Origin: Thermoleophilum album
GTDB taxonomy: Bacteria > Actinomycetota > Thermoleophilia > Solirubrobacterales > Thermoleophilaceae
Assembly: GCF_900108055.1 (NCBI RefSeq)
Contig: NZ_FNWJ01000001.1
Span: forward strand, 744,001 to 808,000
Direction: 5' to 3'
DNA length: 64,000 nt
This document shows positions 1,169 to 10,642 of the stretch, in pieces; the first letter of the stretch is position 1; each line of letters begins with the position of its first letter. The notes under the pieces were generated by a model that ran no database searches, was not told the DNA's origin, and worked only from the letters and a program-made list of their open reading frames with translations. A program made the translations under genes and the position numbers.

Positions 1169-1564
1169 TCAGCGCCCAGAGAGACACTCGCCGATCGCGC
1201 CGATCGACGCGACCACAAACGCGATTCCCGAGACAAGATCGGCTCGCCCGGTGCGCGTTGACTCGCTAACCAATGCGGCCCCTATCGCCAAGCCGGACGC
1301 GAGCGACGCAGCTTGGAGCGGGAAGCGCTGGCTGTCCGGGCGCCGCACGAAGGGTGCGCGCAACCTCCCGGGCTCCCGCCGCGCACACAGAATCAACTCC
1401 GCGGTCGCCATCAGCCCGCAAAGCACACCTGCAGCGAGGCTCAGCCCGGAACCGGTGACAGCGCCAGAAATTACCCATACTGGTAGTCCCAGAAGAAGGA
1501 CGAACAGGACCGCATACCACCTCACCCACGCGACTGCCCTGCTCACGAGCCCCGCTTCACCCAT
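1169..1564 (-). CDS. small four-helix membrane protein, unknown function
   Basis: Not recognised as a named family. About 131 residues with four likely membrane segments (roughly residues 10-33, 37-57, 78-95 and 103-124) and a basic loop in the middle. I chose the ATG at 1564, not the GTG at 1579, because it sits one base after the TGA of the upstream 47-codon ORF (TGA-G-ATG), a translational-coupling arrangement. It is the last gene of a minus-strand series of small membrane proteins lying downstream of a secreted protein with a bacteriocin-like tail. Position and topology suggest an immunity-type protein, but no motif proves this. GC and codon use look lower than in flanking genes. Confidence 0.5.
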   Translation of the reverse strand: MGEAGLVSRAVAWVRWYAVLFVLLLGLPVWVISGAVTGSGLSLAAGVLCGLMATAELILCARREPGRLRAPFVRRPDSQRFPLQAASLASGLAIGAALVSESTRTGRADLVSGIAFVVASIGAIGECLSGR

Positions 1565-1565
1565 C

Positions 1566-1709
1566 TCACCCCCAGACACCGTTCAAAATGGCGAATACGG
1601 GTGAACATAAAGGGTCGACGACGATCGGGTAGGTTTGGGTCCCTTCGGGTGAAGGCGGAAGTGGGCGAGCACGACTCTGCGTTTGTGGGCGCCTTCTCAC
1701 GTTAGTCAT
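1566..1709 (-). CDS. 47-residue ORF with a YPIVVDP pre-tip junction, possible toxin-tip remnant
   Basis: This ORF begins at an ATG overlapping the last codons of the upstream membrane protein (the stop TAA at 1702-1704 lies inside its start region) and ends in a TGA one base before the next ATG. Its middle reads EGTQTYPIVVDP, repeating the WAYPIVVDP junction of the larger frameshifted gene at 2767-3398. The final residues are short and hydrophobic (VFAILNGVWG). It may be the debris of a second secreted protein's C-terminal cassette, or a real small peptide kept in the operon by coupling. No signal peptide is visible. Confidence 0.4.
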   Translation of the reverse strand: MTNVRRRPQTQSRARPLPPSPEGTQTYPIVVDPLCSPVFAILNGVWG

Positions 1710-2070
1710 GTGGGGGCCCGTAGTCGAGTACCATCCTAACGAGTCTTAATGCAAGACTGCCCAACGCGAACACAGCTATCCCCGCAATCACTTGTGACAA
1801 GTACTCCGGCAAAGCAAGAGCCATCTGAAGAAGGCGACCCCCGAGTAACAAGCCGCCTAAAAACGGAAGCGTTCGTATGGCTGCGCTAGCGAGTCGCCTG
1901 AAGTACAGGCCGAACCACGAGCCTGCAGCGTCGTCATAAGCCGGCACAGCGGACGTGATCCCAACTAGCGCAATGATCCACATCCGCTCGTTTTTCGAAA
2001 CGGCTGTGAGGTAATCCAGTCGCTCTAGTACGACAGAAGCAGCACCACTTGTGAGAAGTATGATAACCAT
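1702..2070 (-). CDS. small four-helix membrane protein, unknown function
   Basis: Unrecognised 122-residue hydrophobic protein, starting at the ATG at 2068-2070. A stop codon lies only a few codons upstream in frame, so the start is well bounded, although no convincing ribosome-binding site is visible. Likely membrane segments are near residues 1-15, 29-46, 63-84 and 92-115, with a short C-terminal tail rich in charged residues. It overlaps the start of the 47-codon ORF downstream, so the three cistrons between 1169 and 2070 look like one transcript. Its size and topology resemble the other two membrane proteins of the pocket, although the sequences are not obviously similar. Immunity function is only a hypothesis from context. 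Confidence 0.5.
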   Translation of the reverse strand: MVIILLTSGAASVVLERLDYLTAVSKNERMWIIALVGITSAVPAYDDAAGSWFGLYFRRLASAAIRTLPFLGGLLLGGRLLQMALALPEYLSQVIAGIAVFALGSLALRLVRMVLDYGPPHD

Positions 2071-2322: not shown

Positions 2323-2697
2323 TCACTGTCGCTGCGTGAAGTAGCGGCGGGCACCGTGCCGCAAGTAAAACTCGAAAGCGAAAGCGGACACCAGTAACCA
2401 AAAAAGCCATGAAGCAAGATGCACAATACTACCCCGCTCAATACCTAGCAGGGGTATTGCGTAATACGAGATGAAGGCGTAAACAAACGCGATCACCGCT
2501 CCTCTCCAACCAGCGGCACCTTGCTCACGTGCGGGCCGCTTCTTCCGCACGACCTTCTCGTAGACCGCAAAGGCAATAATGAAAAGCGCCGAAAGAGCCT
2601 CGGGCAGAAAACTAGATCCCTGTCCAAGCGCCTCCGCTAGGCGAAAAGGCGTAGCGGTCAGGGCCACCACGAGTAGCGTATCCTTCCACGTAAGCAC
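2323..2697 (-). CDS. small four-helix membrane protein, candidate immunity protein
   Basis: A 124-residue protein starting at GTG (2695-2697) behind a strong AGGAGG (complement of 2707-2712), about nine bases upstream, so this start is well supported. Four hydrophobic segments are visible near residues 6-24, 30-47, 65-84 and 92-113. A highly basic loop (KVVRKKRP) lies between the second and third. It is the first gene downstream of the frameshifted secreted protein with the glycine-zipper tail, about 70 bases away and on the same strand. Immunity proteins of pore-forming peptides are often small multi-span membrane proteins, hence the suggestion. No family motif confirms it. Confidence 0.58.
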   Translation of the reverse strand: MLTWKDTLLVVALTATPFRLAEALGQGSSFLPEALSALFIIAFAVYEKVVRKKRPAREQGAAGWRGAVIAFVYAFISYYAIPLLGIERGSIVHLASWLFWLLVSAFAFEFYLRHGARRYFTQRQ

Positions 2698-2766: not shown

Positions 2767-3398
2767 CTAGAAGGGATTGAGACCGCTGAGGATGCCAGCG
2801 CCGCAACCGATCGCTGCTCCAGCCCATCCACCGCCGCGAAGCGCCCCGGCCGCACCTCCTACGGCGCAACCCCAAGCAGCTTTCCCTAATTTGCGTAGCC
2901 ACTTCGGGTCCACGACGATCGGGTATGCCCAGTCGCCGGTGGTGTGGGGGACGTGGAGGGTGAGGGTGTTGCCGTTCACGCTCGCGGTCACCGGCACAGG
3001 GTTGCCGTTCGCATCGTAGGCTTGCGGTGGGGTTGCGACCGCCACCGGGTTGCCGTCAGGGTCGACGATAGCGACCGCCCCCGAGTCGAGCAAAACAAGC
3101 CGCTGCCCCTCGCCCCGCAGATCGACGGTGTAGCTGTAATCCTCAGGCGACTCGGGGCCGCGGATCTGCACGAACGTCTCCAAACCAAGCGGGTTTGCCC
3201 GCACAACCTGGTCCGCACCCGGCTGGGTGTTCGCATAAACGACCGCGTCACCCGCCCGCACCCCGCGGTCCGCTGCTGGCGAAACGTCCTGCGGCCTGAC
3301 CACAAGATCCGGGGCGTCCCCCGCACCCTCAAGCGGGAACCCGCCCCCGCGACAACACACACCGCCAAACAAGCGGCACGCGAGCGAGAAATCCTCAA
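2767..3398 (-). pseudogene. secreted protein with RHS/wall-type pre-tip domain and glycine-zipper tail, frameshifted
   Basis: Two frames must be joined. From TTG at 3396-3398, behind AGGAGG (complement of 3403-3408), one frame encodes a signal peptide: RISRSR, then the hydrophobic AACLAVCVVAGAG. The frame then changes by one base within a G-rich run (3339-3348) into a second frame that starts FPLEGAGDAPDLVV and stays open to 2767. The body contains repeated beta-type motifs (IVDPDGNPVAV, YDANGNPVPV) and the WAYPIVVDP junction seen in large actinobacterial wall/RHS-like proteins. The tail is rich in Gly and Ala with two well-spaced Cys (WGCAVGG, AIGCGAG) and ends GLNPF, resembling two-Cys glycine-zipper bacteriocins. 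It may be a broken gene, a sequencing error, or a switchable gene. Pore-forming function is inferred. Confidence 0.55.
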
Positions 3399-3440
3399 GA
3401 AACCTCCTCTAAACCAGAACCGAACCTTGCCGCGCAAACC

Positions 3441-3469
3441 AATAAACGAGAGAGAGAGAGAGACGTCAA
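3441..3469 (-). promoter_or_regulatory. sigma-70-type promoter with a dinucleotide-repeat spacer
   Basis: On the minus strand, TTGACG (complement of 3464-3469) and TTTATT (complement of 3441-3446) are separated by exactly 17 bases (3447-3463). The spacer is (TC)8 followed by G. Matches to consensus are five of six at -35 and four of six at -10. The ribosome-binding site (3403-3408) and TTG start (3398) follow at a normal leader length. Gain or loss of one repeat unit would change the spacing to 19 or 15 bases. Confidence 0.6.
3448..3463. repeat. (GA)8 dinucleotide microsatellite
   Basis: Sixteen bases of perfect GA repeat on the plus strand (TC on the minus strand), lying between the two promoter hexamers of the secreted-protein gene. 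Perfect repeats this long are unusual in the rest of this window. Confidence 0.9.
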
Positions 3470-3653
3470 GACCAAAACACAAAAAATTCACGCGCCAGGG
3501 GCGAGCGGCAGCACAACCGGCAGCTCCGGCTCTCAGGAGCGCGAAGCACCGACGCTCCGGGCCCCCTCCTGCCGCAGGCCGGGGCGACCCGAGCGACAGT
3601 GGTTGACACCTCCCGCTGGCGGCTTTTCGCGCGAACCGCCATCCTTGATCGAG

Positions 3654-5186
3654 ATGACGGCGGCGGGTATCGACGTGGCGGGCATCGATCTGAGGCAGCT
3701 CCAGGACATCGCGATCACCTGGCTGCCGATCGTCTTCATGGGGCTGATCGCAGTAGTGCTCTTGATGACCCTGCGCTACATGCCCCGCACCAAGCCGCAG
3801 ACGCTCAAGCCCGAGTCAGCTGGGTCGGTGCGTTGGGACGACGTCGCGGGTGTCGACGAGGCAAAGGAAGAGTTGCGCGAGGTCGTCGAGTTCCTGCGCG
3901 ACCCGCGCCGCTTCCGCAAGCTCGGCGCGCGCGTGCCCAAGGGCGTCTTGCTGCACGGGCCGCCGGGGACCGGCAAGACGCTGTTGGCGAAAGCCGTCGC
4001 CAACGAGGCCGGGGCGGCCTTCTTCGCGCAGTCGGCGTCGTCGTTCGTCGAGATGTTCGCCGGCCTCGGCGCGGCGCGCATCCGTCGGCTCTTCCGCGCC
4101 GCCCGCAAAGCAGCGCCAGCGATCGTCTTCATCGACGAGCTCGACGCCGTCGGTGCCACCCGCGGCCGCGACATCTCCGGCGAGAAGGACCAGACCCTCA
4201 ACCAGCTGCTCGTCGAGCTCGACGGCTTCTCCGAGCACGAAGACGTCGTCGTGATCGCCGCCTCCAACCTGATCGAAAAGCTCGACCCCGCGCTGCTCCG
4301 CCCTGGCCGCTTCGACCGCCGGATCTTCGTAGCCCCACCCGACCTCCGCGGCCGCAAAGCGATCCTGCGGGTCCACGCACGTGGCAAGCCGCTCGCGGGG
4401 GGCGTCGACCTCGACCTCGTCGCGCGCCAGACCAGCGGACTCACCGGCGCCGACCTCGCCAACATCTGCAACGAGGCGGCGATCTTCGCGGCGCGCGACG
4501 GCCGGACGGTGATCACCCGGCGCGACTTCGACCGCGCGATCGAGCGGGTAATCGCGGGTGCCGAGTCGCGCCGCGCGTTGACCGAGCGCGAAAAGCGCGT
4601 CGTCGCCTACCACGAAGCCGGCCACGCGCTCTGCTCGGAGCTCTTGCCGCGCGTCGAGAAGGTGCATCGGATCTCGATCGTGCCGCGCGGGCGCGCGCTC
4701 GGCTACACCCTCAACCTGCCCGAGGAAGACCGCTATCTGAAAACGCGGGAAGAGCTCATCGACTACATGGTCGTGCTGCTCGGCGGCCGCGCCGCCGAAC
4801 AAGAAGTGTTTGGCGAGGTGACGACCGGCGCTGCCGACGATCTGCGCAAGGTCCACGAGATCAGCCGCGCGATGATCGCCGAGTACGGGATGGGCAGCCA
4901 GTTGCGGGCGAAGCAAGTGCCGACCGACGACTACTCGCTCTCGGACGCCACGCGTCGCCTGGTCGACGAAGAGCAACTGGAGCTGGCGGCGCTCGCCGAA
5001 CGGCGGGCGCGGGCGATCGTCCAAGAGCACCGCGACCGTCTCGACGCCCTCGCCCTGGCGCTGCTCGAACGGGAGACCCTCGAACGTCGTGACATCGAGG
5101 CGCTGATCGGAAATAGCGCCAAGCGGCCAGTGGCTGCCGACCGTGAGGACCTCGACACCCAGGCGCTCGCGCGTGGTCGCGGTTAG
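3654..5186 (+). CDS. ftsH: short-form FtsH/AAA+ zinc metalloprotease
   Basis: Membrane-bound ATP-dependent protease that unfolds and degrades misfolded membrane and soluble proteins. I start at ATG 3654 (510 residues); a longer TTG frame from 3603 adds an unlikely N-terminus. One membrane helix (about residues 20-41, ITWLPIVFMGLIAVVLL) precedes the AAA+ module: Walker A GPPGTGKT, Walker B FIDELDA, and the second region of homology RPGRFDRR. The protease domain has the HEAGH zinc motif and a third-ligand segment TTGAADDL. Typical FtsH has two helices around an external domain and about 600-650 residues; this one lacks that external domain. The pore loop reads MFAGLGA instead of the usual FVG. 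The gene is followed 11 bases later by the epimerase. Confidence 0.88.
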   Translation: MTAAGIDVAGIDLRQLQDIAITWLPIVFMGLIAVVLLMTLRYMPRTKPQTLKPESAGSVRWDDVAGVDEAKEELREVVEFLRDPRRFRKLGARVPKGVLLHGPPGTGKTLLAKAVANEAGAAFFAQSASSFVEMFAGLGAARIRRLFRAARKAAPAIVFIDELDAVGATRGRDISGEKDQTLNQLLVELDGFSEHEDVVVIAASNLIEKLDPALLRPGRFDRRIFVAPPDLRGRKAILRVHARGKPLAGGVDLDLVARQTSGLTGADLANICNEAAIFAARDGRTVITRRDFDRAIERVIAGAESRRALTEREKRVVAYHEAGHALCSELLPRVEKVHRISIVPRGRALGYTLNLPEEDRYLKTREELIDYMVVLLGGRAAEQEVFGEVTTGAADDLRKVHEISRAMIAEYGMGSQLRAKQVPTDDYSLSDATRRLVDEEQLELAALAERRARAIVQEHRDRLDALALALLERETLERRDIEALIGNSAKRPVAADREDLDTQALARGRG

Positions 5187-10472: not shown

Positions 10473-10498
10473 ACGCGCCGTCCCCGTGGCTTCTGAAC

Positions 10499-10639
10499 GC
10501 GCCGCGCGCTAAACGCGACTACCCCTGAACGCGCCGCGCGCTAAACGCGACGGCCCCTGAACCCGCGCCGCGCAAAACGCGCGCCGCGCGCTAAACGCGA
10601 CGGCCCCTGAACCCGCGCCGCGCAAAACGCGCGCCGCGC
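10499..10639. repeat. exact 50-bp tandem repeat between convergent genes
   Basis: Two identical 50-bp units (10531-10580 and 10581-10630) are followed by the first nine bases of a third and preceded by a diverged partial unit (10499-10530). Each contains GCGCGCTAAACGCG and GCGCAAAACGC elements able to form GC-rich hairpins. The array fills the gap between the gabD stop and the fumC stop, so it may serve as a two-way terminator or simply be unstable GC-rich DNA. The unit is not a multiple of three and carries no gene. Confidence 0.85.
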
Positions 10640-10642
10640 TTG

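What the first reader, a model, noticed from the sequence alone, without database searches (positions are those of the whole stretch)
3441..3469. Promoter whose 17-nt spacer is (TC)8 plus G: candidate phase-variable switch
Minus-strand TTGACG and TTTATT are exactly 17 bases apart and the whole spacer is a TC repeat plus one G. A correct leader, AGGAGG and TTG start follow. In established systems such as the Haemophilus hif promoters, slippage of dinucleotide repeats between hexamers switches expression. Here a change of one unit would give 15 or 19 bases and strongly weaken the promoter. I have not seen this described for Thermoleophilia-like bacteria.
Basis: partly seen in the sequence, partly recalled or inferred. 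Interest (0 to 1): 0.75.

Follow-up and report, generated by a model that had tools for sequence, protein, structure and literature searches.

The report
Stuttering promoter spacer before toxin-like genes
In a heat-loving actinobacterium and its two nearest relatives, the gap between the two halves of a promoter is a TC stutter whose length differs from copy to copy (6 to 9 units). This probably lets the cells switch a family of toxin-like secreted proteins on and off at random, although the copy in this window now leads to a broken gene.

Summary
TTGAC-N17/18-TTTATT is a genuine promoter design in this family: it lies upstream of mihF (integration host factor) in nine genomes of at least four genera, with unrelated spacers (17, once 18). 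The genus carries five copies of the TC promoter, and every (TC)>=6 run found in its three genomes is one of them. Repeat numbers are 8 and 9 (own genome), 7 and 8 (second species) and 6 (third), so spacers are 17, 19, 15, 17 and 13. The two own-genome copies are otherwise identical for 94 flanking bases. The genus lacks MutS. A slippage-prone promoter of the Haemophilus hif type is therefore well supported; switching itself is inferred.

Compared with its intact paralogue, the window copy has lost the ATG (now AGG) and a net 226 bp, so the TTG reading is out of frame. The intact genes encode a signal peptide, a conserved domain and interchangeable tails, each followed by a small membrane-protein gene. 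Tail-plus-partner pairs move together, and promoterless spare cassettes occur, as in polymorphic toxin/immunity systems. A (GT)4/5 tract in the signal peptide may be a second lock.

The parts
3464..3469 (-). -35 element TTGACG
   Evidence: Read directly. TTGAC[A/G] is kept in all five TC promoters and in the mihF promoters; homology between G000 and G001 copies begins about here
3448..3463 (-). (TC)8 tract, the variable spacer; 9 units in the paralogue, 7 and 8 in G001, 6 in G002
3441..3446 (-). -10 element TTTATT, 17 nt from the -35 (base 3447 is the G that closes the spacer)
   Evidence: same hexamer at 17-18 nt upstream of mihF in nine genomes
3403..3408 (-). Shine-Dalgarno AGGAGG
   Evidence: read directly; kept in all five copies
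3393..3398 (-). TTG (3398-3396) followed by AGG (3395-3393); the four relatives have ATG at the AGG position, so the start codon is lost here
   Evidence: alignment with paralogue B and relatives
3355..3362 (-). (GT)4 tract in the signal-peptide codons; (GT)5 in the three intact copies, (GT)4 in the frame-broken G001 copy
3348..3355 (-). approximate junction of a net 226-bp deletion relative to paralogue B (226 mod 3 = 1), which puts the signal peptide out of frame with the rest
2905..3348 (-). remnant of the conserved domain (91% DNA identity to paralogue B), in the frame of ORF 2767-3372
2767..2904 (-). variable C-terminal tail after YPIVVDPKW: two Cys, Gly/Ala-rich; a 73% identical decayed counterpart lies in the G001 array (L031:11955-12163)
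2323..2697 (-). small membrane protein, 124 aa, about 3 hydrophobic segments; candidate partner (immunity) gene of the tail
   Evidence: position and hydropathy; no Pfam family
1702..2070 (-). small membrane protein, 122 aa, 53% identical to the partner of an orphan cassette in the paralogous array
1169..1579 (-). small membrane protein, 136 aa, 64% identical to a partner gene in the paralogous array

Best explanation
The feature is one of five related promoters in this genus whose -35/-10 spacer is a slippage-prone (TC)n tract. Slippage during replication, with no MutS-type repair, adds or removes TC units and so moves the spacer in 2-nt steps (13, 15, 17, 19). Only 17, at (TC)8, matches the spacing used by the same hexamers elsewhere in the family, so (TC)8 should be ON and 7, 9 or 6 weak or OFF. 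The promoter drives a secreted protein with an interchangeable C-terminal tail, followed by a small membrane protein that travels with that tail, like a toxin and its immunity protein. The result would be random, reversible expression of a contact or bacteriocin-like weapon (or of the tail-bearing surface protein). Shown here: the sequence anatomy, the promoter design, the repeat variation, the absence of MutS, and the tail/partner co-inheritance. Inferred: slippage inside a clone, ON/OFF expression, and toxicity. In the window itself the gene is broken, so this copy is a relic or drives only the downstream membrane-protein genes.
For: Five copies in three species have repeat numbers 8, 9, 7, 8 and 6 in conserved flanks. 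Own copies A and B are identical for 46 nt upstream and 48 nt downstream yet differ by one TC unit; the G001 pair is identical for 95 nt downstream yet differs by one TC unit and then by one GT unit. TTGAC-N17/18-TTTATT lies upstream of mihF in G000, G001, G002, G003, G007, G018, G021, G024 (17) and G010 (18) with different spacers; 6 of 22 regions had it in the first set against 0.002 in shuffles. Genome-wide in 25 genomes of the family, the non-TC spacers of this hexamer pair were 17 (nine times), 18 (twice) and 20 (once) out of 16 allowed lengths. No (TC)6 or longer was found elsewhere in the genus. MutS is absent in 6 of 6 genomes, with the family found in 11 of 14 controls; NucS is present in the genus, and NucS does not correct indels (PMC8228993). 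Tail-plus-partner pairs are co-inherited and orphan cassettes exist.
Against: No reads, strains of one species, or expression data were available, so the variation is between paralogues and species only. TTTATT lacks the usual A at position 2, and tRNA promoters of this genome use TANNNT. The window gene is broken, so this copy cannot show a full switch. In the sequenced genomes no copy is both 17-spaced and in frame. A 16-bp dinucleotide tract is short, and actinobacterial DnaE proofreading can suppress indels (PMC8228993).
Confidence: 0.6

Rival explanations
1. Neutral stutter. The promoter is real but the TC tract is only an unstable spacer; lengths drift, and copies that leave 17 nt become silent and decay. 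No reversible switching is selected.
For: Two of five genes are broken and the window copy is clearly degenerate. G002 has lost TTTATT next to (TC)6. Only five copies exist.
Against: The intact genes are the ones with off-length spacers, the reverse of what decay after silencing predicts (small numbers). The tract stays pure and 12-18 bp long in all copies of three species although such runs were found nowhere else in the genus.
Confidence: 0.22
2. Evolutionary tuning knob. Repeat number sets a fixed promoter strength for each copy and lineage and changes rarely, so it is not phase variation within a population.
For: Every length difference seen is between copies or species.
Against: Copies with otherwise identical flanks already differ, so length changes faster than base substitution here; MutS is absent.
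Confidence: 0.15
3. The tract is not a spacer but acts in RNA or as a recombination seed (for example a pyrimidine-rich 5' UTR, or a site where cassette copies recombine).
For: Homology between G000 and G001 copies starts near the -35, and G002 diverges right after GTTTA, so breakpoints flank the tract.
Against: The same hexamers at 17 nt without a TC tract form the conserved mihF promoter; no other -10-like TANNNT was seen by eye just upstream of the tract or in the G000/G001 leader (sequences).
Confidence: 0.05

Closest known systems
Haemophilus influenzae hifA/hifB fimbrial promoter, (TA)9-11 between -35 and -10 (van Ham et al. 1993, as described in PMC2651432)
   Same: A dinucleotide repeat fills the promoter spacer; repeat number changes the -35/-10 spacing in 2-nt steps; the target is a secreted or surface product.
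   Different: TC instead of TA, a single promoter instead of two divergent ones, a high-GC actinobacterium without MutS, targets with toxin-like interchangeable tails, and switching not yet shown.
Orphan toxin/immunity cassettes of Rhs and CdiA polymorphic toxin systems (own knowledge)
   Same: Conserved N-terminal part, variable C-terminal tail followed by a co-inherited partner gene, promoterless spare tail-plus-partner cassettes in the array.
   Different: No Rhs, YD or toxin family detected in Pfam; proteins of about 280-290 aa with a signal peptide; tails of about 40 aa that look membrane-active.
Homopolymer-tract phase variation in Mycobacterium tuberculosis (espR 5' UTR, espACD upstream region; PMC11898584) and Gardnerella (PMC11287997)
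   Same: Slippage-based variation in Actinomycetota, in part upstream of genes.
   Different: Homopolymers, not dinucleotides; the espR tract acts on translation; in the passages read none is described as a -35/-10 spacer repeat.

Membership tests
Repeat-in-promoter-spacer phase variation (hif type) | Simple repeat lies exactly between -35 and -10 | tested here: met
Repeat-in-promoter-spacer phase variation (hif type) | The two hexamers form a real promoter with a defined best spacing | tested here: met
   Comparative only: mihF promoters, 17 (eight genomes) and 18 (one); family-wide spacing peak at 17. Transcript start not mapped.
Repeat-in-promoter-spacer phase variation (hif type) | Repeat number varies while the flanks are fixed | tested here: met
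   8/9, 7/8 and 6 in three species; flanks of paralogue pairs identical
Repeat-in-promoter-spacer phase variation (hif type) | Repeat number varies within a clonal population and reverts | not testable with these tools
   no reads or strain sets held
Repeat-in-promoter-spacer phase variation (hif type) | Expression follows repeat number | not testable with these tools
   no expression data
Repeat-in-promoter-spacer phase variation (hif type) | A functional gene lies behind the promoter | tested here: inconclusive
   Not met for the window copy (broken); met for paralogue B, L031 and L034 (intact); L032 is frame-broken
Polymorphic toxin/immunity system | Conserved N-terminal part with interchangeable C-terminal tails | tested here: met
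Polymorphic toxin/immunity system | Tail and downstream partner gene are inherited together; orphan cassettes exist | tested here: met
   L031 tail+partner matches orphan L005:6610-7355 (80%), L032 tail+partner matches orphan L005:11062-11623 (77%)
Polymorphic toxin/immunity system | Known toxin or immunity domain | tested here: not met
   no Pfam family above cut-off in tails or partners; NCBIfam likewise for the proteins scanned
Polymorphic toxin/immunity system | Tail is toxic and partner protects | not testable with these tools
   needs expression in a laboratory strain
Rhs/YD-repeat proteins | Rhs/YD repeats | tested here: not met
   no such Pfam match in the short proteins nor in the scanned parts of the large related ORFs of other genera

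The most novel reading that the evidence does not exclude
A two-lock stochastic weapon. A (TC)n promoter spacer and a (GT)n tract in the signal-peptide codons both vary by slippage in a bacterium without MutS. Together they gate an expression site into which silent tail-plus-immunity cassettes can recombine, combining phase variation with cassette switching of a toxin-like secreted protein. To my knowledge this would be the first slippage-based promoter switch described in the Thermoleophilia.
Probability: 0.3. Interest if true: 0.8.

Novelty: new variant of a known kind. Interest (0 to 1): 0.62.

Why it matters
Promoter-spacer repeats are a classic switch of AT-rich host-adapted pathogens. 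Here the same design appears in a high-GC, apparently thermophilic actinobacterium, with a toxin-like cassette family as target. It suggests that bacteria without MutS, relying on NucS (which ignores indels), may use dinucleotide slippage for bet-hedging in competition. It also gives a simple, directly testable prediction: (TC)8 ON, (TC)7 and (TC)9 OFF. No paper in the searched library combines Thermoleophilia with phase variation.

Tried and rejected
(1) I first doubted the promoter: the built-in scan does not list it because it demands A at position 2 of the -10, and tRNA genes of this genome use TAGACT-like -10 boxes. The mihF comparison overturned this doubt. (2) The sixth long TC run in the order (G033) lies 5 bases from a contig end and looks like an artefact. 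(3) One further exact-spaced hit, G001:1129467 with TTGACA-N16-GTTTAGA, lies in dense ORF overlap and was set aside. (4) Pfam and NCBIfam gave no usable family for the target protein. (5) Structure prediction of paralogue B was poor (pLDDT 44), so no fold search was run; only the tail was moderately confident, as helices. (6) The TC promoter pattern has no match in the viral contigs. (7) The genome-contig scan found only the third species, bacterium HR41. (8) The association of 17-nt spacers with broken frames (2 of 2 against 0 of 3) has a chance of 1 in 10 and is not relied on.

Full report
Observation. The minus strand at 3469-3441 reads TTGACG-(TC)8-G-TTTATT with a 17-nt spacer. The string is unique in the window, with no match in shuffles. 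In the whole genome (2.2 Mb, 5 contigs) runs of seven or more GA/TC units exist at only two places, this one and C1:1225391-1225408. Among 41 genomes of the order, (TC)6 or longer was found at six places. Five are this promoter in the three genomes of the genus; the sixth lies at a contig end.

Paralogue. The second place is the promoter of a paralogue, called B (L005:5461-6309, 282 aa, ATG start, signal peptide). Window copy A and B are identical for 46 bases upstream and 48 bases downstream of the tract, yet A has (TC)8 and B has (TC)9. In B the spacer is 19 nt. The ORF that does carry the conserved domain (2767-3372) lacks the signal peptide.

Relatives. Both other genomes of the genus have the promoter. 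G001 has two copies: L031 with (TC)7, gene intact, 289 aa, and L032 with (TC)8, frame broken because a GT tract in the signal-peptide codons has four units where the intact genes have five. The two G001 copies are identical for 95 nt downstream of the TC tract up to the GT tract, so the only early differences are one unit in each of two dinucleotide tracts. An in-frame GTG start just inside L032 could still give a shortened signal peptide. G002, which is bacterium HR41 (BEIR01000037), has (TC)6 with an intact gene of 290 aa; there the leader diverges directly after GTTTA, so TTTATT is lost. Upstream sequences of G000 and G001 copies are unrelated, and homology begins at about the -35.

Is it a promoter? 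TTTATT lacks the A at position 2 that is normally vital, and tRNA genes of this genome use TANNNT boxes, so I tested the design independently. A genus-wide search for TTGACR-N-GTTTA found the same hexamers at 17 nt without a TC tract upstream of an actinobacterial integration host factor gene (mihF; the name rests on my reading of the protein) in two species. Orthologous upstream regions show TTGAC[G/A]-N17-TTTATT in G000, G001, G002, G003 and G007, and N18 in G010, with different spacer sequences. Many other genomes carry TTGAC with a TAGGTT- or TAAGTT-like box at 17-18 nt at the corresponding place. Shuffled regions give 0.002 such matches against 6 of 22 observed. Three more mihF promoters (G018, G021, G024) also have 17. 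Searching 25 genomes of the family for this hexamer pair with any of 16 spacings gave, outside the TC promoters, 17 nine times, 18 twice and 20 once. The best spacing is therefore 17, which is (TC)8.

Why it should slip. No MutS was found in six genomes, although the family was found in 11 of 14 control genomes; NucS is present in the genus. NucS-type repair does not correct indels (PMC8228993); the same review notes that DnaE proofreading may. Length differences without base changes in the flanks show that the tract changes faster than its surroundings.

What it controls. The intact proteins have a signal peptide, a conserved domain without a Pfam family, and after YPIVVDP a tail that differs between copies. 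Most tails are Gly/Ala-rich with two Cys. Weak relatives in other genera are N-terminal parts of large secreted ORFs. Each tail is followed by a small membrane-protein gene. DNA comparison shows that tail and partner move together. The tail and partner of the L031 gene match a promoterless cassette at L005:6610-7355 (80%). Those of L032 match L005:11062-11623 (77%). The window tail matches a decayed fragment at L031:11955-12163 (73%). Two further membrane-protein genes in the window (1702-2070, 1169-1579) match partner genes in the paralogous array. This is the arrangement of polymorphic toxin/immunity systems; toxicity is inferred, not shown. The structure model was too poor to search with.

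Verdict. The switch is best regarded as a candidate hif-type promoter switch shared by a small gene family of one genus. In the window it sits before a broken gene. Both copies with the ideal 17-nt spacer have broken frames and the three with other spacers are intact; with five copies this has a chance of 1 in 10, so it is only a lead. It would fit either selection against constant expression or a second lock at the GT tract.

Noticed in passing
L005:6528-11621 (G000:C1:1226528-1231621): Array of promoterless tail-plus-membrane-protein cassettes behind paralogue B, like orphan toxin/immunity cassettes; counterparts sit behind the TC promoters of G001.
   Followed up: partly
L069:1916, L074 (reverse strand) and other mihF upstream regions: TTGAC-N17/18-TTTATT is a conserved promoter of the integration host factor gene in nine genomes of the family.
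   Followed up: yes
G000 tRNA upstream regions (L038-L067): 24 of 30 tRNA genes have a TAGACT-like (TANNNT) box just upstream but no recognisable -35 element.
   Followed up: partly
L032, about 95 nt downstream of the TC tract: (GT)4 against (GT)5 in signal-peptide codons shifts the frame of one G001 copy; possible second slippage site.
   Followed up: partly
window 3603-5186: FtsH-like protease gene, divergent from the promoter, matching the FtsH model only from position 145, so without the usual N-terminal extracellular part.
   Followed up: no
window 10493-10640: GC-rich tandem repeats of 16, 32 and 50 bp (two identical 50-bp copies).
   Followed up: no
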